Assembly: GCA_025350695.1 (NCBI GenBank)
Contig: JANXXI010000389.1
Coordinates: 1-44,638, forward strand
Origin: Acidobacteriota bacterium
GTDB lineage: Bacteria > Acidobacteriota > Terriglobia > Bryobacterales > Bryobacteraceae
Direction of reading: 5' to 3'
Length of the DNA stretch: 44,638 nt
In this document: positions 3,810-25,359 of the stretch, piece by piece
Numbering within the stretch: position 1 is the stretch's first letter
Layout of the letters: each line of letters begins with the position of its first letter
Notes under the pieces: generated by a model
The model's input: only the letters and a program-made list of their open reading frames with translations
What the model was told of the DNA's origin: nothing
Databases searched by the model: none
Program-made: the position numbers and the translations under genes

Positions 3810-3831
3810 GAGTTTGATGTCCTGAATTAAG

Positions 3832-4755: not shown

Positions 4756-4812
4756 TCAGTTATGGATCATAGCATGAGAGGATTCCCGGCGGTTTCCCAC
4801 TAAGAAATTGAC

Positions 4813-5730: not shown

Positions 5731-5772
5731 AGTCACAGCCACACCTCCTACGGCTCCATGCATAATTAATCC

Positions 5773-6255
5773 ATGGACCTGAAACTAGTCAATCTGGAAA
5801 TTCCGGAAGGCGCCAACATCATCGTTGGTCAAAGCCACTTCATAAAGACGGTTGAGGACATTTACGAAGCCATCGTGAACGCCGTCCCCCAAATGAAGTT
5901 CGGCGTGGCTTTCAACGAAGCTTCCGGCCCATGCCTCACCCGGTTTGATGGCAACGATTCCGCCCTAATGGCCGCCTCTGTCCGAAACGCCACTGCCATC
6001 GCCGCCGGCCACACTTTCGTAGTCCTAATGAGAGACGGCTTCCCGATCAACGTGCTTGGCCGAATCAAGGACGTCCCCGAGGTTGCCAATATTCTCTGTG
6101 CTACCGCCAACCCAGTCCAAGTCATCGTCGCCGAATCCGAGCAGGGTCGCGGCATCGTCGGCGTAATCGACGGCTCTGCTCCCAAAGGCGTTGAAACTCC
6201 CGACGACCAAGACGCACGCCACAGCTTCCTCCGCAAGATCGGGTACAAACGATGA
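5773..6255 (+). CDS. Adenosine-specific kinase family protein
   Basis: 160 residues, the normal length of the small family called adenosine-specific kinase (DUF355; characterised from Pyrobaculum). Recognisable stretches: IIVGQSHFIKTVEDIYEAIV near residue 16, KFGVAFNEASGPCLTRFDGND near 42 (shown here over its key residues), the strand HTFVVLMRDGFPINVLGRIK near 80, and a late G.GIVGVIDGSAP.GVE. These match the family pattern well. It begins a tightly packed run: its stop overlaps the next gene's ATG (ATGA). The link between a nucleoside kinase and the downstream epimerase and aldolase is not obvious. Confidence 0.85.
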   Translation: MDLKLVNLEIPEGANIIVGQSHFIKTVEDIYEAIVNAVPQMKFGVAFNEASGPCLTRFDGNDSALMAASVRNATAIAAGHTFVVLMRDGFPINVLGRIKDVPEVANILCATANPVQVIVAESEQGRGIVGVIDGSAPKGVETPDDQDARHSFLRKIGYKR

Positions 6256-7253
6256 TCGGCTCTGTTGAACAGCTCGAAGAAATGTTGTCCCGCCCAAGCG
6301 ACGAGGACTTATCCGCACTTAAGGCTCTCGATGGGGACCTCCTCATTCTAGGCGCCGGTGGCAAAATGGGACCCACGCTTACTATGCGCGCAGCTAGAGC
6401 CGGGAAGCGAACCATTGCCGTTTCCCGCTGGAGCGACGTGGCCGCAAAGAGGCGCTTAGAAGCCGCCGGAGTCGAAGTGTTAACCGCCGATCTTCTCGAC
6501 CGCAAACAACTTGCCGCCCTGCCCGACGCCCCCAATGTTCTTTTTATGAGCGGCCGCAAGTTTGGCTCAGCCGCCGACCCGTCGCTCACCTGGGCGATGA
6601 ACGTTTATCTCCCCGCTCTAATCGCCGAACGTTGGAGTTCCTCAAGAATAGTCGCCTTCTCCAGCGGTAACGTCTATCCTCTCCGCCCAATCGCCGAAGG
6701 CGGCGCTCGCGAAGATACACCCATGGATCCGCTCGGCGAGTACGCGCAAACAGGCAGGGGCCGCGAGCGCATCTTCGAATATTTCGCACGCACTCACAAC
6801 GTCCGCACCGCGCTTTTGCGACTCAACTACGCCATCGATCTTCGCTACGGAGTCCTGCTCGACATTGGCGCAAAGGTCTTTGAACGAAAGATGGTGGACG
6901 TTTCCATGGGTGCCGTCAATATCATCTGGCAGGGCGACGCCAATTCAGTGGCTCTACGAATGTTCCCCTTCGCGACGTCCCCGGCAACCATCCTCAATCT
7001 CACGGGCCCCGAAACAATTTCCGTCCGAGCAATCGCCCATCGCTTCGCCGAACACTTCGGAGTAAAACCCCAGTTCACTGGCCAGGAAGCTCCAACAGCG
7101 CTGCTCAACGATGCCAGCAAATGCCACCGCATCTTCGGCTACCCGTCGGTCACTCCCGACGAAATGATTGAGTGGGTGGCCAAGTGGATCGGCATGGCAG
7201 GACACACCTATAACAAACCTACAGGCTTCCAGGTTCGCGACGGGGCGTTCTAA
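6252..7253 (+). CDS. NAD-dependent epimerase/dehydratase-like protein with an altered catalytic motif
   Basis: 333 residues, extended short-chain dehydrogenase (SDR) fold. The Rossmann glycine motif ILGAGGKMGPTL is near residue 32, the strand VLTADLLD near 75 and the SFSSGNVYPL-like segment at about 134-141. The usual YxxxK pair is replaced: Tyr164 is followed by Ala-Gln-Thr-Gly, so Gly168 stands where the catalytic Lys is expected. The C-terminal substrate half includes a typical LNLTGPETISVRAIAHRFAE stretch. It may be a non-catalytic dinucleotide binder or use a different general base. It overlaps the preceding kinase gene (ATGA) and lies 2 bases before the DapA-like gene, so it probably works with them on one small-molecule pathway of unknown substrate. 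Confidence 0.8.
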   Translation: MIGSVEQLEEMLSRPSDEDLSALKALDGDLLILGAGGKMGPTLTMRAARAGKRTIAVSRWSDVAAKRRLEAAGVEVLTADLLDRKQLAALPDAPNVLFMSGRKFGSAADPSLTWAMNVYLPALIAERWSSSRIVAFSSGNVYPLRPIAEGGAREDTPMDPLGEYAQTGRGRERIFEYFARTHNVRTALLRLNYAIDLRYGVLLDIGAKVFERKMVDVSMGAVNIIWQGDANSVALRMFPFATSPATILNLTGPETISVRAIAHRFAEHFGVKPQFTGQEAPTALLNDASKCHRIFGYPSVTPDEMIEWVAKWIGMAGHTYNKPTGFQVRDGAF

Positions 7254-7255
7254 TC

Positions 7256-8266
7256 ATGAAGTTCAATTGGAAGCAGAAACTATTAGACGGGTGCGCTATT
7301 CCCGCCCATCCACTTGCTCTGACTAGCGAACGAAAGCTGGACGAACGGCGCCAGCGGGCCCTTACCCGCTATTACGTCACCGCCGGGGCCGGTGGAGTTG
7401 CCGTCGGCGTCCACACTACACAATTTTCAATCCGTGAATGTGGTCTTTACCGACCAGTATTGGAACTTGCCCAAGAGGAACTGCGCGGTAAGAAAGTTAT
7501 AGCTATCGCCGGTGTCAGCGGCATGACTCTTCAAGCCATCCGCGAAGCGCAAATCGCCCGCGATCTGGGTTACCATGCCGTCCTTCTCAGCATGTCGGCG
7601 CTCCCCAACGCCAACCTACGCAAGCTTATGGAACATACCGAGGAAATTGCCTCAATCCTCCCGGTCATCGGTTTCTACTTGCAACCCTCCGTCGGAGGCC
7701 GGCTGCTTGAATACGAATTCTGGCGCCGCTTCTGCCAGATCAAAAACGTAGTCGCCATCAAGATTGCCCCTTTCAATCGTTACCAAACCCTGGATGTGAT
7801 TCGCGGAGTGGCCGATTCTGGCCGCAAAGATGAAATCGCACTTTATACCGGCAATGACGATTCGATCGTGGTGGATCTCCTCACCCCCTTTGAGTTCGGT
7901 GGCAAGACGTATCGCATTCGCGGCGGATTGCTGGGCCACTGGGCTGTATGGACCAAAAAAGCCGTCGAAATGCGCGACAAACTGGCCAAGCAAAAATTGA
8001 TCACCCACAAGACACTCACTCTTGCCGCCCAGGTGACCGACGCTAACGCCGCATTTTTCGACGCCGCCAACCAATTCCGCGGCTGCATCGCAGGCATTCA
8101 CGAGGTTCTGCGCCGTCAAGGTTTGCTCGAAGGAATCTGGTGCCTCGATCCTCACGAATCCCTCTCTCCAGGTCAATTTGAAGAGATCGACCGTGTCCGC
8201 AAAGCCTATCCCCATTTGAACGACGATAATTTTGTCAGCGAGCATCTCGACGATTGGTTAAAATAG
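7256..8266 (+). CDS. DapA/NanA-family (dihydrodipicolinate synthase-like) aldolase
   Basis: 336 residues, a little longer than typical DapA. TIM-barrel class I aldolase features: GAGGVAVGVHTTQFS near residue 44 (the position of the family's G-T-T-G region), Tyr141 in GFYLQPS and the Schiff-base Lys169 in VVAIKIAPFNRY, with the 28-residue Tyr-Lys spacing of the superfamily. The C-terminal half is atypical and long. The context (epimerase-like gene upstream, no lysine genes) suggests a sugar-acid or other 2-keto-acid aldolase rather than lysine synthesis. It is 2 bases after the epimerase gene and 6 bases before the next gene. Confidence 0.85.
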   Translation: MKFNWKQKLLDGCAIPAHPLALTSERKLDERRQRALTRYYVTAGAGGVAVGVHTTQFSIRECGLYRPVLELAQEELRGKKVIAIAGVSGMTLQAIREAQIARDLGYHAVLLSMSALPNANLRKLMEHTEEIASILPVIGFYLQPSVGGRLLEYEFWRRFCQIKNVVAIKIAPFNRYQTLDVIRGVADSGRKDEIALYTGNDDSIVVDLLTPFEFGGKTYRIRGGLLGHWAVWTKKAVEMRDKLAKQKLITHKTLTLAAQVTDANAAFFDAANQFRGCIAGIHEVLRRQGLLEGIWCLDPHESLSPGQFEEIDRVRKAYPHLNDDNFVSEHLDDWLK

Positions 8267-9565
<1,299 letters not shown>

Positions 9566-9594
9566 CCGAGTTTTATCAAGAAGGTCAAATCTTG

Positions 9595-9625
9595 CGGCGC
9601 TGGCCGCACAAAGCGGTCAGCGCCG
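9595..9625. other. 13-bp hairpin after metY
   Basis: Arms 9595-9607 and 9613-9625 pair over 13 positions with a single G-T wobble and a 5-base loop (ACAAA). It is GC-rich and stable but is not followed by a T-run, so it is either a non-classical terminator, an mRNA 3' stabiliser or a protein site. It lies in the gap between metY and the secreted protein gene. Confidence 0.55.
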
Positions 9626-9665
9626 TAACATTTCGAAGGCCGAAGCGTTTATAAAGGTAATGGAC

Positions 9666-11339
9666 ATGCGAATCGTAATATTTCTGGCCGCAACTTCCCT
9701 TTTTGCGCAACAACAGAAGACGGTTGCTCCGGCGACTGCGCGCTTGGAAGGGCAGGTAGTCAATTCCCAGACCATGGAGCCGCTACGAAAAGTCAGCGTC
9801 ACGATTAGTTCCTTGAGCCGCGGCGCTGGAACTTCGCGTCAACTCTCCACTAGCGTCGACGGTAAGTTCGCCTTCGATCTGCTGCCTGCTGGTAGCTATC
9901 AGATCTCGATCGAAAGAAATGGATTTATCCCTCAGCGCTACAGCCCCCCCGGCCGCTCTTCGACGATCGAAATTATTGCTGGGCAAGCCGTCACCGGCAT
10001 CGACGTAAAATTGGTTCCGCAAGGAGCCATTGCAGGCAAAGTGCTGGATACGGATAACGAGCCAATGCAGCGCGTCCAAGTTAGCGTTCTGAAGGTCACC
10101 GCTATCGGTGGCCGGCGTCGCGCATCCATCACCTCTTCAGCCACCACCAACGACTTAGGCGATTTCCGCATCTTCAATTTACCTGCTGGCAACTACATAG
10201 TTATGGCCACCGCTTCTGGTGGCAGAGGCGGACCAGGAGGCGGATTTCGTGGCCCAGGCGGTTTTGGCGGAGGCCCCCCGCGCGGGCAAGTAGAGAAGAT
10301 GGCCCCCGACGATTATGTCCCCACCTTCTATCCAGGCTCGATCGATTCAACCACTGCTTCATTAATTCAACTCCCGGCTGGAGGCGAGATCACAGGTCTC
10401 AGCTTTCAATTAGGCCGCTCCGCCACTTTCCGAGTGCGTGGCAAGGTGTCTGGTGTGGCGGCGACCGAGGAGGCAAAGAAACGCGGTATGCGCGTCAGTC
10501 TACTTCCCGCCGACCGTAACGCCGTCCTGATGAACAACGGCATGGGCCTTTCTACTTCGGTCCGCAGCGACGGCACTTTCGAATTGCTGAACGTCCAACC
10601 AGCCGCCTATCAGGCCGTTATTATCCGCTCCGACAAAAGGAACGAAGCCGTCCTGGGAAAAAGCCTCGTAACCGTATCCAGCGGGCACATGGATAACGTC
10701 AATATTCTTTGCGCCGAACCGGTGACACTCACTGGAATCGTGAAGACTGAGTCCGGCAAGGAAGCCGACCTAGGGCGAGTTTTGCTGACTCTCAGGCCGC
10801 TAAGTGGTCTCCCAATGGCCGAAGTGGAAGCTGAAGTAAACGACGATTGGAGCTTCAAACTGGAAGGCGCCTCGCGCGAACCGTTTACTTTGAGGATGTC
10901 TGGTCTCGGCGATACCTACATCAAGTCAGTCCGGCTTGACGCCCAAGATGTTACCTTAACCGGCGTCGACTTGAGCAGCGCCGCAACGGGCTCAAAACTC
11001 GAAATCATTCTTGGTGAAAAAGCAGGTTCGGTTGACGGCACGGTAAAGGAAGGCGAAAAAGCAGCTGTTGGCCGCCCCGTGACAATTCTGCCCGACCCCG
11101 CACAGCCCATGCAGCCTTACTTAATCAAAACTGCAACCACCGATGCCGACGGAAAATTCCATGTAGCAGGTCTGGCCCCAGGTAAGTATCGTGTCTATGC
11201 CTGGACGGAAATCATGGCAGACAATTATACCGACCCCGATTTCATGCGCCGCTTCCAAAATGATGGCGGAAGAGTTGAAGTAAAGGAAGGCTCCTCGGAA
11301 CAGGTAACGATACCTGTGATCAAAGTCGACCCGAACTAA
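9666..11339 (+). CDS. Secreted carboxypeptidase-regulatory-like (beta-sandwich repeat) protein
   Basis: About 557 residues. The signal peptide RIVIFLAATSLFAQQ leads into several beta-sandwich units of the CarboxypepD_reg/CNA-B type: LEGQVVNSQTMEPLRKVSVT near residue 27, GAIAGKVLDTDNEPMQRVQV near 118, the GSVDGTVKEGEKAAVGRPVT unit near 455, and a last one with DADGKFHVAGLAPGKYRVYA. A Gly/Pro-rich linker lies near residues 183-205. Such proteins are abundant in the Bryobacterales envelope and have no known enzymatic role. Two ATGs compete (9660 and 9666); AAAGGT at 9653-9658 is 7 bases before 9666 but only 1 base before 9660, so 9666 is preferred. Confidence 0.8.
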   Translation: MRIVIFLAATSLFAQQQKTVAPATARLEGQVVNSQTMEPLRKVSVTISSLSRGAGTSRQLSTSVDGKFAFDLLPAGSYQISIERNGFIPQRYSPPGRSSTIEIIAGQAVTGIDVKLVPQGAIAGKVLDTDNEPMQRVQVSVLKVTAIGGRRRASITSSATTNDLGDFRIFNLPAGNYIVMATASGGRGGPGGGFRGPGGFGGGPPRGQVEKMAPDDYVPTFYPGSIDSTTASLIQLPAGGEITGLSFQLGRSATFRVRGKVSGVAATEEAKKRGMRVSLLPADRNAVLMNNGMGLSTSVRSDGTFELLNVQPAAYQAVIIRSDKRNEAVLGKSLVTVSSGHMDNVNILCAEPVTLTGIVKTESGKEADLGRVLLTLRPLSGLPMAEVEAEVNDDWSFKLEGASREPFTLRMSGLGDTYIKSVRLDAQDVTLTGVDLSSAATGSKLEIILGEKAGSVDGTVKEGEKAAVGRPVTILPDPAQPMQPYLIKTATTDADGKFHVAGLAPGKYRVYAWTEIMADNYTDPDFMRRFQNDGGRVEVKEGSSEQVTIPVIKVDPN

Positions 11340-11353
11340 CTGATTAAACTAAC

Positions 11354-13420
11354 TCATCGCTTTAATATTCCAAACATGTTGGAGAACCCGTCCGTCCAAG
11401 TTCGGAAGTTTGGGTCGGGTTTTAGGAACTCGCCCTGCCGCACTAAATTAGGCAGACTGTCCGCAGTCTCCTCGGCCATCACAAGCACCCAGGTGGAACC
11501 GAAGCAAACCTCACCCGGATCGTCCGATTCATCGTACTCAATCACCAAACCCTTCTTCCCAACGCTCTCCGCGCTGGCCGCGACCACTGGCTTCAACTCT
11601 AAATACTTGTTGGAAATATGCACTGCCAGCACGCCGTTCGGCTTCATGTGCTTCCAGTAAAGACCGAATGCTTCCTTGGTCAGTAAGTGCACAGGTACGG
11701 CATCGCCCGAGAAGGCATCAATCGTCAACACATCGAAATTCTGAATCGGCTCACGTTCAAGCGAAAGCCGTGCATCGCCCAGCGCGATTTCCACTGGCGC
11801 CTCAGCGTCCTTCAAATAACTGAACTCCGAATTAGCCAGCTCAATTACCTGCGGATTGATTTCGTAAACACGATACGAATCCCCTTTCTTCCCGTACGCC
11901 GTCAGGTTTCCAGTGCCCAGTCCCACAATCCCAACGCGCTGCGCCACACCAGACTTGCGTGAAAGCATCAGCTTGCCAACGCCCGATTCGGTGCAATAGT
12001 AGTTAGTGATCAGCCGACGCTTGTCAGGAGCCAAAAACTGCTGCCCATGGTTGATCACTCCATGCATCAACTTGCGGACGCCATTCTCTTCCTCCGTGCG
12101 AATCTGCCCGTAGAAATTCCGCATAACCACGCGATAGCCGACAAGTTCATAACGCACTACGCGCCCTAGTTGCACCATAAAAGCGCCCAAAAAAAGAACG
12201 ATCACCGCAAGACCAGCCATACGCAGCTTGCTTTGTTCTATCCATTCTTCCTCGCCACGAACCATCGCCAGGCAGAGTAGAATTGCCGTCAATGCCAGTC
12301 CGCCAGGGAACTCGTAATAGGCGTTGAAAAGGTTAGGCGCGATCAATCCGACAAATGTGCCACCCACCGCTCCACCAACCGAAAGCATGAAATAGAAGCT
12401 TGTCAAATAGCGCGGGTGCGGCTTCAACCGCGCCAGTTCTCCATGGCAAGCCAATGCCATGAAAAACATCGCGGCTGAATATCCGGCAATCATCCTCGGC
12501 ATGCCCCAATCCGACGGGTCCATGAACCAAGCCGGCAGCCAACTGGCTCGATCCGGTTTCAACATCCAGGAAACCAGACCCAGCGATAAGAATGCCAACG
12601 GCAGAAACACCGGCCGGTAGTAAAACTTCGAAGTCTCAAATGCAAGGATAAACGTCAGCAAATAGAGGACCAGCGGAATCAACCAAAGGAACGGAATGGC
12701 CGCCACGTCCTGGGTCAAGTGCGTGGTGATCGTCAGTAGCAGAATCGAGGCGCATGCCGCCAGCCCCGTCCACATCAACTGGTCGCCAATTGAAGGCGGC
12801 GCGGCATTGGCATAGCCTTCGTCGTTATGACTTTCGTAGACCGCATCTTTGCTTTTCCAAGCCGTGAAGATGCAGAGCGCCACAAACACGGCATACGCGG
12901 CAGACCATCCGTAGGCCTGCACTTTTGCACTGAAGTTCGGTTCCACCAGCGGCGGGTAGCTCAGCAGCGCGAGCAACGAGGAAAAGTTTGAAAGCGCAAA
13001 TAGACGATAAGGAATCGCCCCTTGAAACTGTCGCGTGTACCAAGCCTGCAACAGCGGGCTTGTTGTCGATAGAAGGAAATAAGGCAATCCGATGGTGGCC
13101 AACAGAAGCACCAAAATGGCGATGGATGGATTTTCCGTCCCGCTCGGTTTCCAATTGTTGCCCGGCAGAATGGGCAGCGCCAGCACACTCACGGCGAGCA
13201 GTATGCTGTGAATCTTGATCTGTCGTTCTGTGCGCTGCTTCTGAACGATCCAATGAGCATACCCGTAGCCCGCTAACAGCGCGGCTTGGAAGAACAGCAT
13301 GCAAGTATTCCAGACGGCCGCCGACCCGCCGAACCACGGCAGAATGATCTTGGCGATCATCGGTTGAACCTGGAAAAGTAGGAAGGCGGAGAGGAAGATG
13401 GTTATGGCGTAAAGGAGCAT
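11354..13420 (-). CDS. Fused membrane transporter-like / spermidine synthase-like protein
   Basis: 688 residues. The N-terminal about 420 residues contain many hydrophobic helices (for example ITIFLSAFLLFQVQPMIAK, which opens this family, and LLLATIGLPYFLLSTTSPLL). The soluble C-terminal part is a SAM-dependent methyltransferase/aminopropyltransferase fold: VGIVGLGTGNLTAYGKKGDS near residue 492, the acidic loop YEINPQVIELA, IALGDARLSLE, and FDVLTIDAFSGDAVPVHLLT near 565. This matches the widespread 'fused MFS/spermidine synthase' proteins, whose substrate is uncertain. It is convergent with the upstream secreted protein gene, with 14 bases between stops. A perfect TATAAT lies 25 bases before the ATG. 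Confidence 0.88.
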   Translation of the reverse strand: MLLYAITIFLSAFLLFQVQPMIAKIILPWFGGSAAVWNTCMLFFQAALLAGYGYAHWIVQKQRTERQIKIHSILLAVSVLALPILPGNNWKPSGTENPSIAILVLLLATIGLPYFLLSTTSPLLQAWYTRQFQGAIPYRLFALSNFSSLLALLSYPPLVEPNFSAKVQAYGWSAAYAVFVALCIFTAWKSKDAVYESHNDEGYANAAPPSIGDQLMWTGLAACASILLLTITTHLTQDVAAIPFLWLIPLVLYLLTFILAFETSKFYYRPVFLPLAFLSLGLVSWMLKPDRASWLPAWFMDPSDWGMPRMIAGYSAAMFFMALACHGELARLKPHPRYLTSFYFMLSVGGAVGGTFVGLIAPNLFNAYYEFPGGLALTAILLCLAMVRGEEEWIEQSKLRMAGLAVIVLFLGAFMVQLGRVVRYELVGYRVVMRNFYGQIRTEEENGVRKLMHGVINHGQQFLAPDKRRLITNYYCTESGVGKLMLSRKSGVAQRVGIVGLGTGNLTAYGKKGDSYRVYEINPQVIELANSEFSYLKDAEAPVEIALGDARLSLEREPIQNFDVLTIDAFSGDAVPVHLLTKEAFGLYWKHMKPNGVLAVHISNKYLELKPVVAASAESVGKKGLVIEYDESDDPGEVCFGSTWVLVMAEETADSLPNLVRQGEFLKPDPNFRTWTDGFSNMFGILKR

Positions 13421-13444
13421 TTCAAGTTTTTAGGGGAAAAGGGC

Positions 13445-13450
13445 ATTATA
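13445..13450 (-). promoter_or_regulatory. Candidate -10 element for the fused membrane protein gene
   Basis: A perfect TATAAT reads on the minus strand 25 bases before the start at 13420, implying a short 5' leader of about 18 bases. No convincing -35 box is seen at the expected distance. Confidence 0.35.
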
Positions 13451-13568
13451 AAGGGTTCAACGGCGTAGGGCCAGTGTGTGCGCGGATTTTTTAATCCAGG
13501 CCTGTTTCGTGACGACCCGTTATCCATTCGGTTTCGCGATATCCTAATAACTAAACGACGCTCTCCCA

Positions 13569-13874
13569 GTGACACTCATAGTTCAAGCCAACGGAAGAAT
13601 CACGATTCCTCCACGTCTCCGCTCGAAGATCGGGATCAAGGAAGGTGTTGTTCTCGATGCAAGGATTTCGAGCGGCACCCTTGTTCTCAACCCCAAAGCT
13701 CCAGTAGTAGAGGATGATGAATACACGCCAGAACAGCGCCGATACATCGAACAGCGATTTGCGGAGGCGGACGAAGACAGAAAGAATGGTCGAGTTTATG
13801 GACCTTTCACCGGTCCGGAAGCTGTCAAGTTTTTGAAGCGAGAGCTCAAAGCAAGAGCAAAGCAGCAGAAATAG
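13569..13874 (+). CDS. AbrB/MazE-type antitoxin-like DNA-binding protein
   Basis: 101 residues from GTG at 13569. The N-terminal swapped-hairpin domain is typical: IVQANGRITIPPRLRSKIGI, then KEGVVLDARISSGTLVLNP. The C-terminal half is helical and charged (YTPEQRRYIEQRFAEADEDR and a later GPFTGPEAVKFLKRELK), which is the usual toxin-binding tail. The gene ends with TAG at 13872, and an open frame for a RelE-type toxin continues in the same frame. Antitoxins of this class bind their own promoter; the 13440-13568 gap would hold it, but no clear operator palindrome was found. No good ribosome binding site is present. Confidence 0.8.
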   Translation: MTLIVQANGRITIPPRLRSKIGIKEGVVLDARISSGTLVLNPKAPVVEDDEYTPEQRRYIEQRFAEADEDRKNGRVYGPFTGPEAVKFLKRELKARAKQQK

Positions 13875-13877
13875 CCG

Positions 13878-14126
13878 ATCACGCGGGTTGAGCTCACGGA
13901 ACGTGCTATTGATGAATTAGCAGCTGCGCCGCTCGCGGTCCAAAGGGCTTTAATCAAACAAATGAGCTTACTATCGCGAGACGTTCGGCATCCATCGCTT
14001 CGTGCAAAAAAGTTTGACGGACGGTCAGAGAGGTGGCAAGCTCGGGTTAACGACGATTGGCGCTTCTACTTCGATCATCTCAATGGAACTTATTCAATCG
14101 ACAGCATTATCCCCTACCCGAAATGA
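13878..14126 (+). CDS. RelE/ParE-superfamily toxin-like ORF without a standard start codon
   Basis: From ATC at 13878 the frame encodes 82 residues to TGA at 14124-14126. It reads ITRVELTERAIDELAAAP, a KQMSLLSRDVRHPSLRAKKF middle, then DGRSERWQARVNDDWRFYF and the end DSIIPYPK. This is the RelE/HigB layout: an early helix pair, a basic 'lrakk..g....w..Rv...wR..f' core and a short final strand. It directly follows the antitoxin stop in the same frame, separated only by TAG and CCG. There is no ATG, GTG or TTG before Met29, so a full toxin would need an ATC start or UAG read-through, or the gene is broken. The coding pattern is intact to the end, which favours recent or residual function. Confidence 0.65.
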   Translation: MTRVELTERAIDELAAAPLAVQRALIKQMSLLSRDVRHPSLRAKKFDGRSERWQARVNDDWRFYFDHLNGTYSIDSIIPYPK

Positions 14127-14185
14127 TCCCCCACCCGCCTGTGATACCCTAATTCTTTAGACTCCAATTTCAGGCTCAAGTCCCG

Positions 14186-14827
14186 TTGCCAGCACGGTCC
14201 AGCGAAGCCTTCACTTTACGAACGTATCCCTTTGGGGAAGCCGACCTCATCGTCAGCTTTTTCACCAAGGATGAAGGCAAAATGCGCGGTGTCGCCAAGC
14301 GCGCCCGTAAACCGAAAAGCCCCTTTGGAGCAGGTCTGGAAAGGCTCTCGTTAGTCCGCATGGAATACTATCAGCGGGAAAACGCAGAGCTTGCACGGTT
14401 GAACAGTTGTGAGATGCTTGCCAGTCCCTTCGGCCTGGCAGGAGATTATGCAATGAGTGTGGCGCTTGATTTTTTGGCTGAAGTTTCAGAGCACCTGCTG
14501 CCGCCTCATGAAGAGAATGAGAAGTTTTTCCGGTTGCTTAGCGCGGTGGTAACTCAACTGCGCACCCACCCGGCCAATGGGCCCTGGCTGGCAGTGAACT
14601 ACTTCAGCTTCTGGGCCGTCAAACTTTCCGGATTTCTTCCGGAATTGCGAGTGAGTGAGGATTCCTTGAACTTGGCGCGGGAAATGGCGCGGAAGCCGAT
14701 TGTTGAGATTGTCCCCATTGACGCAAGCCGCGCGCTTGGCGCCGACCTTCGCCGTCAAATGGTGCGGTCGATTGAAAGCCACGCTGAACGCCGTTTAATC
14801 ACCGTTCCGATTCTGGAATCCCTGTAG
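14186..14827 (+). CDS. recO: DNA repair protein RecO
   Basis: 213 residues from TTG at 14186. RecO loads RecA on gapped DNA together with RecR. The N-terminal OB fold is clear (SSEAFTLRTYPFGEADLIVS, then GKMRGVAKRARKPKSPFGAG). The helical C-terminal part holds LDFLAEVSEHLLPPHEENEK and YFSFWAVKLSGFLPEL. The cysteine-rich zinc loop that many RecO proteins carry after GFLPEL is absent; the sequence goes directly into a short helix. The TTG start is supported because the conserved N-terminal motif begins there, but its ribosome binding site is weak. It is 9 bases before glyQ and probably co-transcribed with it. Confidence 0.9.
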   Translation: MPARSSEAFTLRTYPFGEADLIVSFFTKDEGKMRGVAKRARKPKSPFGAGLERLSLVRMEYYQRENAELARLNSCEMLASPFGLAGDYAMSVALDFLAEVSEHLLPPHEENEKFFRLLSAVVTQLRTHPANGPWLAVNYFSFWAVKLSGFLPELRVSEDSLNLAREMARKPIVEIVPIDASRALGADLRRQMVRSIESHAERRLITVPILESL

Positions 14828-14836
14828 ATTTTTGCA

Positions 14837-15715
14837 ATGGACCTATACCAACAAACGCTGTTCAAGCTAAAACAATATTGGGCCGAACGCGGGGCCATTA
14901 TTCAAGAACCTTACGACATGGAAGTGGGCGCCGGAACCATGTGCCCGGAAACATTCCTTCGCGTGCTGGGGCCGAAGCCGTACAAAGTGGCCTACGTGCA
15001 GCCCAGCCGCAGGCCCGCCGATGGCCGCTATGGCGACAATCCTAACCGCTTATACAAGCACCAGCAATTGCAGGTGATACTGAAGCCAACTCCGGTCGAC
15101 GTGTTGGAGCAATACATGGGCAGCTTGGAAGCCATCGGCATCGATCTCTCCAAACACGACTTGAAACTGGAAGAAGACAACTGGGAATCGCCGACTTTGG
15201 GCGCCTGGGGTATCGGTTGGCAGGTGATGCTGGACGGTATGGAAGTGACGCAGTTCACCTATTTCCAACAGTGCGGCGGCGTGGATCTGGAACTTGTGCC
15301 GGCGGAAATAACCTATGGTTTGGAACGCTTAACTGCATTCCTGCAAGGCGTGGAAAGCGTTTACGATATTGCCTGGGCGCCTGGGTTTGCTTATCGCGAC
15401 GTTCGGTACAACGACGAATTGCAGAGCTCGGTTTACAACTTCGAGATGGCCGATGTGGACATGCTGTGGAAGCTGTTCGCCCTTCATGAAAAGGAGAGCC
15501 AGCGTCTGATTGACGGATTTGCCGATTATGAAGACAAGCGGCGCTATCCACTGCTGCCAGCTTACGAGCATGTTTTGAAATGCTCGAACAACTTTAACTT
15601 GCTCGATGCTCGCGGCGCGATCTCGGTGACGGAGCGGGTCGGAGTGATTGCCCGGGTAAGGAAGTTGGCTGTTGGCGTTGCGCAGGCTTGGGTTGCGCAG
15701 GAGGCCGTCCGATGA
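14837..15715 (+). CDS. glyQ: Glycine--tRNA ligase alpha subunit
   Basis: 292 residues, normal for bacterial GlyQ; with GlyS it charges tRNA-Gly. Signatures: the N-terminal [39 protein letters not shown] near residue 30, [20 protein letters not shown] near 54, [20 protein letters not shown] near 114 and [20 protein letters not shown] near 140. Its stop overlaps the glyS start (ATGA). Confidence 0.97.
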
Positions 15716-17673
15716 ACTTCCTGCTCGAAATTGGCGCCGAAGAAATTCCTGATTGGATGATTGAGCCCGCGCTGGAACAACTCAGTAAGGATTTTTCGGC
15801 TTTGCTTGCGGCCAGCAAACTCGGCGGTTCGGTGCAAGCGGTTGACGCTTCGCCGCGTCGTTTGGTGCTGTGGGCTGAAGGCTTGCCCGCAGGGCAGAGT
15901 GATGGTGAAGAGCTAGTAACAGGTCCACCGAAGTCGGCTGGAGCCGGGGCCGCTGGTGGCTTCGCCAAGAAGAATGGCGTCACGGTCGACGCCCTTGAAA
16001 CCCTGACCACGGATAAGGGCGAATACTTCGGCTATCGTAAGAAAACCGTTGGTCGCGCCACCGCTCCCGTGCTGGCCGAAGCGTTGCCTGATCTGATTTT
16101 GAAGCTCTACTTCCCGAAGACGATGTATTGGACAGGGAAGGGAGGTCCACGCTTCATTCGTCCCATTCGCTGGATCGTCGCATTGCTTGGCGGCGAAGTT
16201 GTTAACTTCGAATTGGCCGGCGTCAAGACGGGGAACGTCACGTACGGTCATCGGCGTCTGGGCTCGAAGGCTGCTATTCCGCTCACCTATGAAAACTATG
16301 AACGAAGCTTACAAGAAAACTTCGTGCTGGTACGCGCCGCTGAACGCAAGCAGCGTATTCTGGACGGCATCGCCAAATTAGGCGCCAACGTCAAGACCGA
16401 CGAAAAGTTGCTTCACGTTCTGACCTACATCACGGAATGGCCGACGCCCATTATGGGCAGTTTCGATGAAAGCTTCCTTCAATTACCCAAAGAAGTGCTG
16501 GTGATGGTGATGCGCCACCACCAGAAGAACTTCTCCGTCGAAAGGGCTGACGGCGAGTTGTCGAACCAGTTTGTCGCGGTGATGAACATCGACAACGACA
16601 ACGAGCGCATCGTGCAGCGCGGTAACGAACGCGTGCTTCGCGCCCGCTTCAACGATGCGAAATTCTTCTGGGACGTTGATCAGCGGAAAAAGCTTGCCGA
16701 TCGTGTCAATGATTTGAGCAAGGTCACTTTTCAGGCCAAACTTGGCTCGTATCTCGAAAAGACAAATCGCATGATTGACCTCGCCCGCGAACTCGGCGGT
16801 GACGATGCCGCTCGCGCCGCGCACCTGGCTAAGGCCGATTTGACCACGGAGATGGTGAAGGAATTCACCGACCTGCAAGGCATCGTTGGCGGCCTGTACG
16901 CCAAAGCCCAAGGCGAAAAAGAAGCAGTTTGCACGGCCATCTACGAGCATTACAAGCCGCTCAGCATGGATGATTCCATTCCTGCCACCAAGACCGGTCA
17001 GGCTCTGGGTTTAGCCGATAAGCTAGACACATTGCGCGGATGTTTCAGCGTCGGCATGATGCCCACCGGATCGAAGGATCCCTTCGCGTTGCGCCGCGCC
17101 GCTCAGGGCGTTGTTAAGATCCTCATCGAAGGCGGCTGGAGCGTTTCGCTTAAGAAGATCCTTGGTGGCGACGCTCAACTGGAAGAATTCTTCCTTGACC
17201 GGCTGAAATATTACTTCCGCGAAATTCAAGGCTTCAAGTACGACGAAGTGAATGCCGTGCTAGCCGCTGGGTCCGACGACGTGGTAGATGCGCACGAGCG
17301 CCTGAAAGCGATCCAGGCCGTTCGTCCCACCGAAAATTTCGAGCCCCTGGCCGCCAGCTTTAAGCGCATGAAAAACATTGTGACGCAGGCGAACTTCACT
17401 GGCGGAATATTCAACGCCGCTTTGATGACCGAAGATGCTGAGAAGCACTTACACGCGGCCGCCGAGTCATTGCGCGGTAAACTGAAAGGTCTGCCATATC
17501 AAGCTTCGCTTGAAACCATCGCCGGGCTTCGTCCCGCCGTGGATCAGTTTTTTGACAAGGTCATGGTGAACGCGCAGGACCAATCCGTGCGCAACAACCG
17601 TCTGGCCATGCTTGCCGGATTGTTGAGTGAGTTTTCCTCGATCGCCGATTTTTCGGAGATCGTGACGGGCTGA
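15712..17673 (+). CDS. glyS: Glycine--tRNA ligase beta subunit
   Basis: 653 residues. It begins [20 protein letters not shown], the hallmark of GlyS. Further typical segments: [20 protein letters not shown] near residue 138, the [16 protein letters not shown] region near 262, [20 protein letters not shown] near 430 and [15 protein letters not shown] near 454. The start at 15712 has GGAGG 7 bases upstream and overlaps the glyQ stop. A longer frame from 15688 is possible but not supported by the family start. The two-subunit (alpha2beta2) enzyme is thus complete. Confidence 0.97.
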
Positions 17674-20806: not shown

Positions 20807-22132
20807 GTGAACTCAAATGGTTTCGCGATATACCCGTTTTTTCTTACGTGTGCAGCGATTAGTCAGTACATCGCACTGGCTGGTCCGGGCTTCAGCACTC
20901 TCCACAAGAAAACAATTCACCTTGAGGTGCGAAAGCCGGCTTTGGTCAGGCTGGCGAACACATCAGTGGCGTTTCAAGGCGCCGCTACTAATCACGAATA
21001 TCAGCCCGTGTTGGTGAGCCTTCTGACCATGCTGGGCACGGAAATCGTCAAGAATGAGAAGACACTGGTGTTGAAATCAAATATTAGAGACGCTGATTGG
21101 ACGCTCTATATGAACGTTACCGGCTATTCCGCTCCCAATCCCACCAAAGCAACGCAACACGCTGGAAACGCCACTACCGTGACCGATCATTGGACGGGAT
21201 CGTTGAACGTTGCCTACCGTGTTCTTGACCGGCAGGGAAGGGTTCACGATGCTGACAACGTCAGAGTAAGTTACGACAAAACCTCCGTGGAAGGCGCCGG
21301 TAAGGGAACCAACATGCTCACGGGCTTGAAGAACAAGATTCCCGGAATGAAAGGATCGACCGATTCTGTTCCCACCAGCACGGAGGACCTGAAGCAAATT
21401 CTGATTCGAAAAGCGGTCGAGGATATCAGCGCGAAATTGGGAAATACTAGCTTGCCGCTTCAGGTAAGAGTCGCCAACGGCGAAGATCGTCTGAATCGGG
21501 CAGCGGTGCTGATGGACCAGAAGTTGTGGGCGCGCGCGCTTCAGGAACTTGAATCGGCCGGTGCGTTTCCTGGTGCTGAGGATGAATCTTATCGGCTGTA
21601 CGACTTGGGCCTTGTTTACGAGGCTATATCGTACGAGGCCAAGGGATATAAAGATCAGCGGACAAATCTTTTTCTAGCTCAGGAAATGTACGACAAGGCG
21701 ATGGAGTCTAACCGCAAAGAGAAATATTTCGTTGAGACGGTTGCGCGGTTAAGAGACTCGATTGCCAGATACAAGACGCTTGACGATCAGCAAAAGGCGG
21801 ATGGGAAGTTGCCGCCCGCCGTTAAATCCTCTCCTTCGGTTACGCAGGTTGCTACTCCCCGCAGTGGGGGAACTGGAAAGGCAAATTCGGTGTCGGATAT
21901 CATCAAACTGCACAAAGCGGATATCCCCAAAGAGCAGATCATCGAGATCATCAAAAGCGCGCCGCTCGATTTTAATCCGGTAGATGTACAGACCGTACTG
22001 GCAATCAAAGAGGCTAATCTACCCATTGAAGTGCAGAATGAAATGCGCAAGAAAGTGGGGGCGGCTCCGATTCGTCCCGTAGCCCGGCCTGCGACCCCGC
22101 CGGCTGCTCCCAAAAAACAGACAACCAAATAG
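20807..22132 (+). CDS. Secreted protein with TPR-like region and C-terminal helical repeat domain
   Basis: About 441 residues from GTG at 20807, chosen because AAGGAG lies 6 bases upstream; the ATG at 20780 has none. A hydrophobic signal segment (IYPFFLTCAAISQYIALAG) is followed by a beta-rich region (residues about 40-200) and a helical part that resembles TPR units (NRAAVLMDQKLWARALQELE, then YRLYDLGLVYEAISYEAKGY). A linker rich in Ser/Pro/Gly leads to a C-terminal domain SVSDIIKLHKADIPKEQIIE ... FNPVDVQTVLAIKEANLPIE, a helical repeat I have seen described in many secreted acidobacterial proteins without a function. The tail is Pro/Ala/Lys-rich. It lies 20 bases before the caspase-like gene, so the two are probably one unit. 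Function unknown. Confidence 0.75.
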   Translation: MNSNGFAIYPFFLTCAAISQYIALAGPGFSTLHKKTIHLEVRKPALVRLANTSVAFQGAATNHEYQPVLVSLLTMLGTEIVKNEKTLVLKSNIRDADWTLYMNVTGYSAPNPTKATQHAGNATTVTDHWTGSLNVAYRVLDRQGRVHDADNVRVSYDKTSVEGAGKGTNMLTGLKNKIPGMKGSTDSVPTSTEDLKQILIRKAVEDISAKLGNTSLPLQVRVANGEDRLNRAAVLMDQKLWARALQELESAGAFPGAEDESYRLYDLGLVYEAISYEAKGYKDQRTNLFLAQEMYDKAMESNRKEKYFVETVARLRDSIARYKTLDDQQKADGKLPPAVKSSPSVTQVATPRSGGTGKANSVSDIIKLHKADIPKEQIIEIIKSAPLDFNPVDVQTVLAIKEANLPIEVQNEMRKKVGAAPIRPVARPATPPAAPKKQTTK

Positions 22133-22152
22133 TCACAATTCTAAAAACTTCC

Positions 22153-23295
22153 ATGACACGGCGAAAATGGTTGGCAATCGCGGCGGCGGCTTCAGTCTGT
22201 GCCCAGGACAGGGACGGGCTCAACAAGCGCGGCGCGGCGCGGGACAGGTTGACTCAAGTCTTGGAACAGTTGCCGGTGAACCCTTCAGCCAAGGCGGTAG
22301 ATTCCGCTTTGAGCGGCATCCGTGGCGCCCTTGATTTGGATATCAGCCTGGGAGATGCCTATTATTTGAGACAACTTTGTCTCAAGCGTCTGAAGAAGGA
22401 TGAGGCGCAGCAGAGTAGAGATCTGGCGGCGGCCAAACGGTACGGATCAGAAGCACTGGCGGAAGGGTTGGACCCTTTCCACTTGGCCGTGCCGAAACTC
22501 AACGCCGATCTGGGTCTTGTGGAGCAGAAGTGGGCGCTGGTAGTTGGAGCCAGCAAGTTCAATCCTGAAACTGGCGCCTCTCCTTTGCACTACGCCGACG
22601 CCGATGCCACTGCTTTTGCCGAGTTGCTGTGCGACCCGAAAGTGGGCCGCTTCCCGCCGGCACACGTTTTTCTTTTGACGAACGGCCAGGCGACTACCGC
22701 GCAAATCAAGGCGCGGCTAAACACCATTGCCCGGCGGGCGGGGAGCAGGGATGTGGTGGTGGTGTACTTTTCCACCCACGGATCTTCGCGGGCTGACGAT
22801 CATCGAGGCGTCAGTTATTTGTACACATATGATACGGATGTTTCCAGCCGTGACTCCATTTTTGGGAGTGCTCTTCCTATGGTGGACATATCCGGAATCC
22901 TTGTGAATCGTTGTCTGGCGCAAAGAACTGTCAGTATTTTTGACACCTGCCACAGTGGCGCGGCTAATCCAGGACAGTCGCTATCGGACGAGGACATGAA
23001 GCGGCTGCGTGAAGGAGCGGGGAGGTATGTGCTCAGTTCCTGTCAGGCGGATCAATTGGCATATGAGGCGGATGGTCATGGTTATTTCACTGGCGCCTTG
23101 ATTCGCAAACTTCGGGAATCGAAGGGATGCGTCCAGCTTAAAGATTTATTCCAAGTTGTGCAAGCAGAAGTTGGGGCCACCGTGCTTAGAAAGCATGGCA
23201 AGAAACAAACTCCGACAATGCTGAAAAGTGATAGCGCCGCGGAGATTGTTTTGGGCATCGCTCCTGGGCAGACGGCCGAAAAATGCAACGGCTAA
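22153..23295 (+). CDS. Caspase-like (peptidase C14) protein with an export signal
   Basis: 380 residues. The caspase/metacaspase dyad is present: His209 in VVVYFSTHGSS and Cys266 in SIFDTCHSGAA, each after a hydrophobic strand as in clan CD peptidases. The domain begins with WALVVGASKFNPETGASPLH near residue 126, where the ALLVG.......LP.A.nDA pattern of caspases is expected. It starts MTRRKWLAIAAAASVCAQD, a twin-arginine-like export signal, so the peptidase probably acts outside the cytoplasm. A helical region (residues about 25-115) lies between the signal and the domain. Metacaspases usually cut after Arg or Lys; the target is unknown. Its stop overlaps the convergent CHASE2 gene by 4 bases. 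Confidence 0.88.
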   Translation: MTRRKWLAIAAAASVCAQDRDGLNKRGAARDRLTQVLEQLPVNPSAKAVDSALSGIRGALDLDISLGDAYYLRQLCLKRLKKDEAQQSRDLAAAKRYGSEALAEGLDPFHLAVPKLNADLGLVEQKWALVVGASKFNPETGASPLHYADADATAFAELLCDPKVGRFPPAHVFLLTNGQATTAQIKARLNTIARRAGSRDVVVVYFSTHGSSRADDHRGVSYLYTYDTDVSSRDSIFGSALPMVDISGILVNRCLAQRTVSIFDTCHSGAANPGQSLSDEDMKRLREGAGRYVLSSCQADQLAYEADGHGYFTGALIRKLRESKGCVQLKDLFQVVQAEVGATVLRKHGKKQTPTMLKSDSAAEIVLGIAPGQTAEKCNG

Positions 23296-24521
23296 TTGGA
23301 ATGGTGTTCGTTCATTTTTGGGTTTTCGACATTTAGTTCAATAATCAATACAACGAGCATGCCTAGGAGGAGTCCGTTCCAACCCAACCAAAGAATGTTG
23401 AAATACATCATTCCGGCGCTTATTAAGAAGAGAACAAACGCTGCGATGGCAACGTGGATGAACTTGTCCCGAACCGTTTTTGCAGGAGATCTGATTTCAA
23501 AAAATAGCAAGATCACACCAACCAGGACGTCGAGTATGAACATTTTCCAGCGTGGCCATTCGCGGAGGAAGTCGCCGGAAAGTTCAGCTTCCACTGCCGC
23601 GGCATTGAGGGCGATGCCAGAAATCTCACCCGCTGGTCCCAGGTGTTCGTCCTTATGGTGGAATGATCCACCAATGAGGACGATTTGGTTTTCTAATACC
23701 TTGGAGATTTCCTGATCGTTGAGGGTTAACTTTTCGCCCAATCTTGTTAAAGGGTTGTCGGAATGGCTGCCTGCTTCCTTGGGAGGCTTGCAGGCATCGA
23801 GAAAACTTCGCGCCGGAATCCATCGAACGTTTTTTCTGTGCATAAGGAAGACCTGTTCGGGGCCATGGTCCAGTTCGCTCCCCACTGGCCGACGGTATTC
23901 TTCGGCCACCGCCCTAGCCCAGGTCTTCACAACCAAAGGTTCCGAAGCACCCGTGGAAAGGGCGAAGTTCCTGGGATAGCGCCGCACATGAGCATCTCCT
24001 TCCTGGGGATAAATGGGAGGGGCCCATTTCAATTCCGGGGGAGGTGCTCTTACGTTGAATCCCAGAACAAATGACGACTTGTTAAGTCGCTCGTGCCCTG
24101 ATTCATCTCCACTTTTGAAGGAATCCACCGCCCAAATCTTCGATGGCTGGTTGTCTCGCAGAGGATTGAATTTATTCAGATATAGGCCCGCGTATTTCTT
24201 TGATTCCGTTAGAAGATCAATTCCCACGACTGACGGTTTGCGGCTCGCCACTTCCTTTACGAGCTCCAGAACCCTCTCCTCGTTTAGTGGAGCAACGCCA
24301 TCGAAGCAGTTCGTATAAGAGTCTTCGTCGATGTCCACTATGATGATCCTGTTCGAGATTTCTTTTTCCGATCCGGGCGTCACCATGGAATGCAGAAAAT
24401 CAAAAGCAACTCCTTCTAAACTATCGAACCAACCCCTATACTCCAGAACCCAAGTAAGGGCTGCCGCTGCGATGATAATAGCCACGCCGCGCCAGAAATG
24501 GAAGCTCAGAAATGGATTCAT
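23292..24521 (-). CDS. CHASE2-domain membrane protein without an output domain
   Basis: 409 residues from ATG at 24521. One N-terminal membrane helix (FWRGVAIIIAAAALTWVLEY), a large extracytoplasmic CHASE2 domain, and three closely spaced C-terminal helices (MFILDVLVGVILLFFEI, FIHVAIAAFVLFLISAGMMY, WNGLLLGMLVVLIIELN). CHASE2 hallmarks: RIIIVDIDEDSY near residue 59, KPSVVGIDLL near 91, and NQIVLIGGSFHHKDEHLGPA with ISGIALNAAAVEAEL near 290-320. CHASE2 is normally the sensor of kinases, cyclases or caspase/CHAT proteins; here nothing follows the last helix, so signalling must use a partner. The frame opens further upstream but a signal-free cytosolic extension overlapping the next gene is unlikely. 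Confidence 0.87.
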   Translation of the reverse strand: MNPFLSFHFWRGVAIIIAAAALTWVLEYRGWFDSLEGVAFDFLHSMVTPGSEKEISNRIIIVDIDEDSYTNCFDGVAPLNEERVLELVKEVASRKPSVVGIDLLTESKKYAGLYLNKFNPLRDNQPSKIWAVDSFKSGDESGHERLNKSSFVLGFNVRAPPPELKWAPPIYPQEGDAHVRRYPRNFALSTGASEPLVVKTWARAVAEEYRRPVGSELDHGPEQVFLMHRKNVRWIPARSFLDACKPPKEAGSHSDNPLTRLGEKLTLNDQEISKVLENQIVLIGGSFHHKDEHLGPAGEISGIALNAAAVEAELSGDFLREWPRWKMFILDVLVGVILLFFEIRSPAKTVRDKFIHVAIAAFVLFLISAGMMYFNILWLGWNGLLLGMLVVLIIELNVENPKMNEHHSN

Positions 24522-24528
24522 CGTCCCA

Positions 24529-25359
24529 TTACCTCTTGGTGCTTTGCTGTTCAACAATTTCGGCCATGCTTGCCATGAAAGCATGGCGCGCGGCCGCAAC
24601 AGTGCTCAAAGTTGAGACTTCAGACAGCTTGTCCAGCGAGGTGACGGTCCGCGACCAATCGCCATTCAGCTTTTTGAACTCGCCTTCAGGGGCGATGACA
24701 ACCCAGGCTGGTACGGACTCCGGGTCGGCCCTGCAGTTTTCGACGGCGCCTTTTTCAAGTCGGTATCCACCTGGCGCAAGTCCAGAAGCCGGCGTGATGC
24801 CTTGAGGATCCACCGCGGAGTCCCAGTTGATGAGGAACGTCTTTGCCGCCTGTTGCTTTCCAAGATGCTGCACGATGAGGCAATAGTGTCCTTCAAGAAT
24901 ACGGCGTAAAGCCGGTCCCCAGTGAATACCGCGAGAGTCCGAAAGTAACAGCGCGTCGGTTGGACTTCCACCGGCTCGCGCGGCGGCCGTCACGTAATTC
25001 TTAGGCTCCCGCTCCTCAAATAGTGCTGAAATCCGCTTCATCGGGCCGTGGGCACTCTCCTCGGAAAGCTTTAAAACTCCATCCGCTTTGTCACCACAGA
25101 TCGAAGGCTTACAAGATCCGGTTGGACAAGAGTAGAAATGAATTCCTTCCCCTGGGCAATCAAGTACGAGGGCCGAAGCTTTGCCATTAGTGGGCTTCTT
25201 GAATGTGACGATGGCGGACGCCGGGAGTTCTCGGCCTCGGATCAACTTCTTTGAATCGGCCGTCCATCCATCATCCGCGCTTATGACCTTTGGCTGCGCT
25301 TGCAGTCCCATGGTTGTTGCAGTAGGAATCAATAAAGCGAGAACGAGGTTACGACGCAT
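24529..25359 (-). CDS. Secreted protein with a small cysteine cluster, function unknown
   Basis: 276 residues. A signal peptide (RRNLVLALLIPTATTMGLQA) precedes a mature part with four closely spaced cysteines near residues 68-88 (LDCPGEGIHFYSCPTGSCKP, then SICGD), suggesting disulfides or a metal site. Later strands include HYCLIVQHLGKQQAAKTFLI near 158. I do not recognise a family. GGAGG lies 5-9 bases before the ATG. It is 7 bases upstream of the CHASE2 start on the same strand, so the two are almost surely co-transcribed; a ligand-binding or accessory role for the CHASE2 protein is an inference from context. Confidence 0.7.
   Translation of the reverse strand: MRRNLVLALLIPTATTMGLQAQPKVISADDGWTADSKKLIRGRELPASAIVTFKKPTNGKASALVLDCPGEGIHFYSCPTGSCKPSICGDKADGVLKLSEESAHGPMKRISALFEEREPKNYVTAAARAGGSPTDALLLSDSRGIHWGPALRRILEGHYCLIVQHLGKQQAAKTFLINWDSAVDPQGITPASGLAPGGYRLEKGAVENCRADPESVPAWVVIAPEGEFKKLNGDWSRTVTSLDKLSEVSTLSTVAAARHAFMASMAEIVEQQSTKR

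What the first reader, a model, noticed from the sequence alone, without database searches (positions are those of the whole stretch)
20807..25359. Envelope caspase-CHASE2 cluster split over four exported or membrane proteins
A secreted TPR-like protein and a caspase-like peptidase (His209/Cys266, Tat-like signal) face a CHASE2 membrane protein without output domain and a secreted Cys-containing protein; the two units touch by a 4-base overlap of stops. CHASE2 and caspase-type (C14/CHAT) domains are known to occur together in large single proteins of cyanobacteria and other bacteria. Here sensor, protease and accessory parts are separate and directed out of the cytoplasm, suggesting an envelope stress or death-control system of a new layout.
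Basis: partly seen in the sequence, partly recalled or inferred. Interest (0 to 1): 0.65.

Follow-up and report, generated by a model that had tools for sequence, protein, structure and literature searches.

The report
Exported caspase with output-less CHASE2 sensor
Four neighbouring genes of a soil acidobacterium encode a caspase-like protease that carries an export signal, together with a membrane sensor that has no inner signalling part, and the same set recurs in related bacteria, suggesting a protease signalling unit that works in the cell envelope.

Summary
They form two modules. Module A is an LptE/PelC-like + TPR protein followed by an exported C14 caspase, found in 24 of 25 Acidobacteriota caspase loci. 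Module B is a CHASE2 membrane protein without output domain plus a secreted Cys-rich two-domain protein. CHASE2 lies within 1.1 kb of the caspase in 10 of those 25 loci (an 11th at 7.1 kb), in convergent and co-directional layouts, far above chance. All four genes occur together in the window and four close relatives. Export is supported by a pattern: 21 of 26 caspases have Sec-like signals and a Cys pair in the mature N-domain; the five of the window's clade have Tat-like TRR signals, lack that pair and carry extra Cys. Dyad and S1 aspartates are conserved, so an Arg/Lys protease is predicted. In four CHASE2 loci without the Cys-rich protein, a disordered secreted protein with one R-G-[LF] motif lies beside CHASE2: a candidate substrate. 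Caspase-CHASE2 fusions are known; this split layout outside the cytoplasm is a new variant. Death control is unsupported; activity and contacts are untested.

The parts
20807..22132 (+). Scaffold-like secreted protein (441 aa from GTG 20807; 450 aa from ATG 20780): signal sequence, LptE/PelC/CsgG-type domain (model residues 54-222 of the 450-aa form), TPR (about 234-340), C-terminal helical domain (371-425)
22153..22206 (+). Tat-like signal MTRRKWLAIAAAASVCAQ of the caspase (end of signal estimated by eye)
   Evidence: TRR motif in 5 of 5 of its clade; TatC in own genome
22153..23295 (+). Exported C14 caspase, 380 aa; His209 (22777-22779), Cys266 (22948-22950), S1 aspartates Asp151 and Asp264
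23292..23295 (.). 4-base overlap of the convergent stop codons (TAA on +, TAG on -)
   Evidence: the same 4-base overlap in L137 and L138, 44 bases in L140, 59 in L141
23292..24521 (-). CHASE2 membrane protein without output domain, 409 aa (ATG 24521); CHASE2 domain 23508-24461
24529..25359 (-). Secreted Cys-rich two-domain protein (SEC), 276 aa, six Cys; low-confidence linker 99-129 with Arg128 (24976-24978)

Best explanation
The cluster is a protease-signalling unit that works outside the cytoplasm. An exported caspase-type protease, predicted to cut after Arg/Lys, is made with an LptE/PelC-like TPR protein that probably holds it in the envelope or docks its substrates. An inner-membrane CHASE2 protein, with its secreted partner SEC, senses an envelope condition and gates or recruits the protease on the periplasmic face, since it has no cytoplasmic part able to signal. 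The output would be cleavage of an envelope protein. Shown: the genes, domains, conserved linkage and pattern of export signals. Inferred: physical contact, gating, protease activity, the signal and the substrate.
For: All four genes occur together in the window and in L137, L138, L139, L140; flanks of these five and L141 share no orthologues (four weak alignments over three gene pairs, all under 30% identity). In L139 the SEC-CHASE2 pair is turned round yet still adjacent. CHASE2 lies within 1.1 kb of the caspase in 10 of 25 Acidobacteriota loci, an 11th at 7.1 kb; chance about 0.0017 per locus for 10 kb either side. The adjacency label needs 4 changes on the caspase tree. Among 201 relatives, 8 of 14 genomes with TPR protein and exported caspase have an output-less CHASE2 against 1 of 187 others, including G020 where the two modules lie on separate contigs (counts assigned by hand, tested). 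CHASE2 ends 15 aa after its last TM. Export: Cys/signal pattern, one Tat-like clade at 100/100, TatC in own genome. Asp151, Asp264 and Cys266 in 26 of 26 caspases, His209 in 25 of 26, the other a gap. TPR model N-domain matches PelC Z 12.5, rmsd 2.3 over 118 residues.
Against: 14 of 25 TPR-caspase loci have no CHASE2 in the fetched stretch, so the caspase does not always have it beside it. SEC-CHASE2 also occurs with no C14 or CHAT gene in an 18 kb stretch (L082) and in a 19 kb stretch (L210). No interaction, activity or localisation was measured. Loss of the Cys pair and gain of Cys in the Tat-like clade would also fit a return to the cytoplasm. Signals were judged by eye and hydropathy, not by a trained predictor.
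Confidence: 0.5

Rival explanations
1. The caspase is a processing protease for one dedicated secreted neighbour (SEC, or the disordered R-G-[LF] protein), and CHASE2 is an anchor or receptor for that product rather than a sensor that gates the protease.
For: Of five CHASE2-adjacent loci without a SEC match (L142, L144, L145, L147, L154), four have beside CHASE2 a small disordered secreted protein with a single R-G-[LF]; SEC has an Arg at the position of Arg128 in 6 of 7 rows, in a low-confidence linker of the model; S1 aspartates predict Arg/Lys specificity.
Against: The motif rests on 4 sequences, three of them from one caspase clade; no cleavage shown; L147 has a larger gene that looks SEC-like by eye instead.
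Confidence: 0.22
2. A death or defence system in which the caspase acts in the cytoplasm, like the EACC/TRADD-N conflict systems and caspase-CHASE2 fusions.
For: Similarity to caspase_w_EACC1 below its cut-off (112.1 bits, cut-off 140) and a match to PADLOC's generic caspase model (46 bits); known caspase-CHASE2 fusions, one with the caspase predicted inside.
Against: Export signals of two kinds in relatives; below the EACC1 cut-off; no EAD, TRADD-N or NTPase domain reached significance in the four proteins.
Confidence: 0.08
3. In the window's clade the caspase has returned to the cytoplasm or stays tethered inside by an uncleaved N-terminus.
For: The five lack the Cys pair and carry 5-7 Cys (catalytic one included) in the catalytic half, as in cytoplasmic enzymes; long stem branch of 1.02.
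Against: TRR plus a hydrophobic core is kept in 5 of 5, the other four being 53-61% identical to the window protein; Tat substrates fold in the cytoplasm and need no disulfide (general knowledge); TatC present; partner proteins have signal-like starts.
Confidence: 0.13
4. The CHASE2-caspase neighbourhood is coincidental or inherited synteny without a functional link.
For: In 14 of 25 loci CHASE2 is not in the fetched stretch.
Against: Unrelated flanks, changed orientations, chance far lower.
Confidence: 0.03

Closest known systems
Metacaspase-CHASE2 fusion of Trichodesmium (PMC3501461, passages read; PMC2853523, passages read)
   Different: One polypeptide with the caspase predicted in the cytoplasm; here separate proteins with the caspase carrying an export signal
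EACC2-caspase proteins with variable C-termini incl. CHASE2, and EACC1 systems (PMC8195603, passages read)
   Same: Caspase linked to an extracellular sensor; some systems have a separate TPR gene
   Different: No EACC, TRADD-N, NTPase or ECF sigma component recognised in the four genes; caspase exported
BiofilmReg operon of Burkholderia: LysM/FecR protein predicted outside the cytoplasm + CHASE2 histidine kinase + response regulator (PMC5192318, passages read)
   Same: A secreted protein encoded next to a CHASE2 membrane protein
   Different: CHASE2 there carries a kinase; here no output, a caspase beside it, and no FecR or LysM match in SEC
Cyanobacterial YS pseudo-orthocaspases with a Tat-like N-terminus (PMC6426788, section 17 and passages read)
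   Same: Caspase-fold protein with a twin-arginine-like leader and conserved S1 aspartates
   Different: Catalytic dyad replaced there; intact His-Cys here
LptE/PelC/CsgG/TraT-type outer-membrane-associated proteins
   Same: Fold of the N-terminal domain of the TPR protein
   Different: No lipobox seen by eye; extra TPR and C-terminal domain

Membership tests
Peptidase C14 / orthocaspase | PF00656 caspase domain over cut-off | tested here: met
   84.1 bits, cut-off 21.4
Peptidase C14 / orthocaspase | His-Cys catalytic dyad | tested here: met
   H209, C266; C266 in 26 of 26, H209 in 25 of 26 with a gap in L162
Peptidase C14 / orthocaspase | Two acidic S1 residues (Asp95, Asp211 of TbMC2) for basic P1 | tested here: met
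   Asp151 and Asp264 in 26 of 26; matched through motifs aligned with Metacaspase-1 to residues named; the correspondence of numbers is my inference
Peptidase C14 / orthocaspase | Proteolytic activity after Arg/Lys | not testable with these tools
   needs biochemistry
CHASE2 sensor proteins | PF05226 over cut-off with N-terminal TM and C-terminal TM block | tested here: met
CHASE2 sensor proteins | Cytoplasmic output domain (kinase, cyclase, etc.) | tested here: not met
   ends 15 aa after last TM; only a few residues before TM1 in the ATG form
EACC1 caspase conflict systems | NF047832 caspase_w_EACC1 over cut-off | tested here: not met
   112.1 bits, cut-off 140
Caspase-CHASE2 fusion proteins | Both domains in one polypeptide | tested here: not met
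   separate convergent genes
FecR/LysM-CHASE2 (BiofilmReg-like) operons | Secreted partner with FecR/LysM domain | tested here: not met
   no FecR or LysM match in the window protein or six relatives
DUF928 proteins | PF06051 match or profile similarity | tested here: not met
   none in SEC; hhalign with one DUF928 member probability 0.2%
LptE/PelC/CsgG-type fold (TPR protein N-domain) | Fold similarity to solved members | tested here: met
   Foldseek E down to 2e-5 (HpaA) and 9.4e-5 (LptE), VIA Z 12.5 to PelC
LptE/PelC-type lipoproteins | Lipobox cysteine | tested here: not met
   no lipobox seen in the window protein (by eye)
Tat substrates | S/T-R-R-x-hydrophobic motif (recalled) plus hydrophobic core; Tat-dependent export | tested here: inconclusive
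   motif in 5 of 5 of the clade, TatC present (TatA/B not searched); export itself not testable here

The most novel reading that the evidence does not exclude
A caspase-type proteolytic signalling pathway that runs wholly outside the bacterial cytoplasm: an output-less CHASE2 protein switches an exported Arg-specific caspase on the periplasmic face, and a dedicated secreted protein (SEC, or a disordered protein with an R-G-[LF] site) is its substrate or released messenger. CHAT and WD40-caspase proteins with signal-like starts beside CHASE2 genes in other Acidobacteriota would be further forms of the same principle.
Probability: 0.2. Interest if true: 0.82.

Novelty: new variant of a known kind. 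Interest (0 to 1): 0.58.

Why it matters
Bacterial caspase homologues are mostly discussed as death or defence effectors, and what CHASE2 senses is unknown (stated in PMC5192318). A conserved cassette in which an intact caspase with an export signal is linked to a CHASE2 protein with no cytoplasmic output gives a testable system for both: the output should lie in the envelope, the protease is predicted to cut after Arg/Lys, and candidate substrates sit next door. The apparent Sec-to-Tat change with loss of a Cys pair is also a clean case of a protein changing export route.

Tried and rejected
FecR-like identity of SEC: first thought from reading relatives; no Pfam match, so dropped. DUF928 identity: no profile match, though a DUF928 gene lies between CHASE2 and CHAT in L118. 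SEC fold: model pLDDT 74, no Foldseek match under 0.001; VIA best Z 7.1 to a helical piece, Z 6.5 for residues 22-91 with 5ix9, about Z 5 FN3-like for 124-225, too weak to name. PDB by single sequence: none at E 0.01; by profile, metacaspases and GSU0716. Genome-contig scan with the CHASE2 protein: no relative. Test whether output-less CHASE2 genes more often have a C14/CHAT gene within 8 kb: 7 of 12 against 6 of 36, p 0.009; rows not independent, and two of the 12 (L103, L136) are short only because the contig ends. Papers: no description of this cassette seen in the listings of searches (open-licence PMC only; others listed 15 of 21, 12 of 17 and 15 of 212). PMC10907252: passages seen, not relevant.

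A small disordered secreted protein was sought within 6 kb of the caspase in 25 loci: 5 hits, 4 with the motif, the fifth (L152) 5 kb away and probably spurious.
Full report
WHAT IS THERE. The window is one whole contig of a 7.19 Mb, 391-contig genome; the caspase's nearest named relatives are an uncultured acidobacterium and Bryobacterales, Acidobacteriota. Between a rightward PEP-utilising kinase-like gene and a rightward TonB/Oar-like gene (both named by eye) lie two tail-to-tail gene pairs: TPR protein > caspase, and SEC > CHASE2 on the other strand. The ends of the caspase and CHASE2 genes overlap by 4 bases. The genome search found one other CHASE2 gene and one other C14 gene, both elsewhere, and no second SEC.

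THE FOUR PROTEINS. Caspase: PF00656 84.1 bits; a profile of 11 relatives matches metacaspases in the PDB. Asp151, Asp264 and Cys266 are in 26 of 26 caspases and His209 in 25 of 26, with a gap in L162. The two aspartates correspond, by the motifs aligned, to those said to hold basic substrate residues in TbMC2 (PMC6426788, section 17). CHASE2: PF05226 61.7 bits, one TM, the CHASE2 region, then a TM block and 15 residues. TPR protein: AlphaFold model pLDDT 81; residues 54-222 have the LptE/PelC/CsgG/TraT fold (PelC Z 12.5, rmsd 2.3, 118 aligned), then TPRs and a small helical domain. SEC: six Cys, two beta regions joined by a low-confidence linker and a helical end; fold not identified.

CONSERVED NEIGHBOURHOOD. 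In 201 relatives, SEC was found by single sequence only in the window, G014 and G088, and these carry the whole set. The genome-contig scan with the caspase alignment gave 68 loci. I counted 25 as Acidobacteriota: L137-L159, L161, L162. L141 is titled Nevskia soli but its contig length equals G083:C254, which genome search places in the window's family; I kept it. The other 43 (mostly Obscuribacterales/Melainabacteria) share the caspase domain: none has the TPR gene and one (L164) has a CHASE2 gene. In the 25, the TPR gene precedes the caspase in 24 (not L141; in L149 and L161 it is broken over two ORFs). A CHASE2 gene is within 1.1 kb in 10 (L137-L142, L144, L145, L147, L154) and at 7.1 kb in L158. 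Layouts differ: convergent in L137, L138, L140, L141, L147, L154; co-directional in L139, L142, L144, L145. Some of the 14 without CHASE2 are short stretches; on the contig of L159 a CHASE2 gene lies 12.5 kb away (L080). A further case outside the 25 is G059, TPR > caspase > CHASE2 on one strand. Flanking genes of six loci have nothing in common beyond weak alignments between three gene pairs. With 112 CHASE2 places in 297 phylum genomes and an assumed 4.5 Mb genome, chance for one locus is about 0.0017; 11 of 25 would be 1e-24 and even 4 of 25 1e-7 if independent, which they are not. On the caspase tree the adjacency needs 4 changes.

TWO MODULES. TPR-caspase occurs without CHASE2 in the fetched stretch in 14 of 25 loci. 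SEC-CHASE2 occurs with a caspase 7 kb off (L079), 12.5 kb off (L080), with a CHAT gene upstream (L081), or with neither in the fetched stretch (L082, L210). Among 399 genomes of the class, SEC matched 5, one of them weakly and without CHASE2 beside it (G712). In 201 relatives, 8 of 14 genomes with the TPR protein and the exported caspase have an output-less CHASE2, against 1 of 187 others (Fisher 5e-10). These assignments were made by hand. G083 is counted although its two genes lie on different contigs. Genomes with only a weak TPR match (G044, G058, G102, G110, G165) or with this caspase but no TPR match (G087, G117) were counted among the others, and short-frame weak CHASE2 hits in G076, G149 and G165 were not counted.

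EXPORT. In 26 caspases (window + 25), 21 start with a Sec-like sequence by eye and have a Cys pair in the mature N-domain, 37 apart in 19, 36 in L151 and 43 in L161; in 19 of the 21 the catalytic half holds a single Cys, two in L147 and L159. The other five (window, L137-L140) start with TRRx + hydrophobic core, lack that pair (they have one Cys at another place, L140 two) and have 5-7 Cys, the catalytic one included, in the catalytic half. They form one clade, 100/100, in a tree built from the catalytic half only. The simplest reading is a change from Sec to Tat export: a Sec substrate oxidised outside keeps its disulfide, a Tat substrate folds inside. A return to the cytoplasm is the rival. 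TatC is present.

A CANDIDATE SUBSTRATE. Of the five CHASE2-adjacent loci without a SEC match, four (L142, L144, L145, L154) have beside CHASE2 a secreted, Lys-rich, disordered protein of about 110 residues with one R-G-[LF]; L147 has instead a 352-residue gene that looks SEC-like by eye. SEC has an Arg at the position of Arg128 in 6 of 7 rows; in L158 the Arg is two positions earlier; the model's linker there has low confidence. Given the acidic S1 pocket this is a sensible cleavage-site hypothesis, no more.

WIDER PATTERN. Other CHASE2 genes of the phylum also lie near caspase-fold genes, and most of those whose N-termini I inspected begin with a signal-like sequence: CHAT proteins in L098, L118, L127, L133, L134 (weaker in L124) and C14 proteins in L097 and L128 (by eye and hydropathy).

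MECHANISM. A CHASE2 protein with nothing inside, next to an exported protease, suggests that sensing and response both happen in the periplasm, with the LptE/PelC-like TPR protein as scaffold. Linkage, domains and predicted topology are shown; gating, contacts, activity and substrate are inferred.

NOVELTY. Caspase-CHASE2 in one protein is known, in one case with the caspase predicted inside; a FecR/LysM + CHASE2 kinase operon is known, and a Tat-like leader is known on cyanobacterial homologues with a replaced dyad. The split, exported, output-less arrangement was not seen in the paper listings searched. I call it a new variant of a known kind.

Noticed in passing
L097 (G269:C51) 2080-17640: Four caspase-family genes (two scanned, both with WD40 repeats; N-termini signal-like) surround an output-less CHASE2 gene at 7706-9190.
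   Followed up: partly
L118 (G181:C67) 4749-10763: CHAT protein with signal-like start, DUF928 protein (36.5 bits) and CHASE2 protein in a row.
   Followed up: partly
L124, L127, L133: CHASE2 proteins with a large N-terminal part (protein kinase in L124 and L133 by Pfam; L127 not scanned) beside CHAT genes.
   Followed up: partly
L132 (G363:C1048) 8199-9992: TIR-CHASE2 protein: a TIR domain in front of a CHASE2 domain.
   Followed up: no
L149, L152, L153, L157: Acidobacteriaceae loci in which the TPR-caspase pair has a second, larger C14 gene upstream (4 of 4) and a CHAT-like gene downstream (not in L152), with no CHASE2 in the stretch.
   Followed up: partly
L142, L144, L145, L154: Small disordered secreted Lys-rich proteins with a single R-G-[LF] motif beside CHASE2.
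   Followed up: yes
L141: Record titled Nevskia soli, but the contig equals in length one in a genome grouped with the window's family; the title may be wrong.
   Followed up: partly
G000:C119:27725-28597 and G000:C182:11444-12133: The only other CHASE2 and C14 genes found in the own genome; both in longer open frames (643 and 705 residues).
   Followed up: partly
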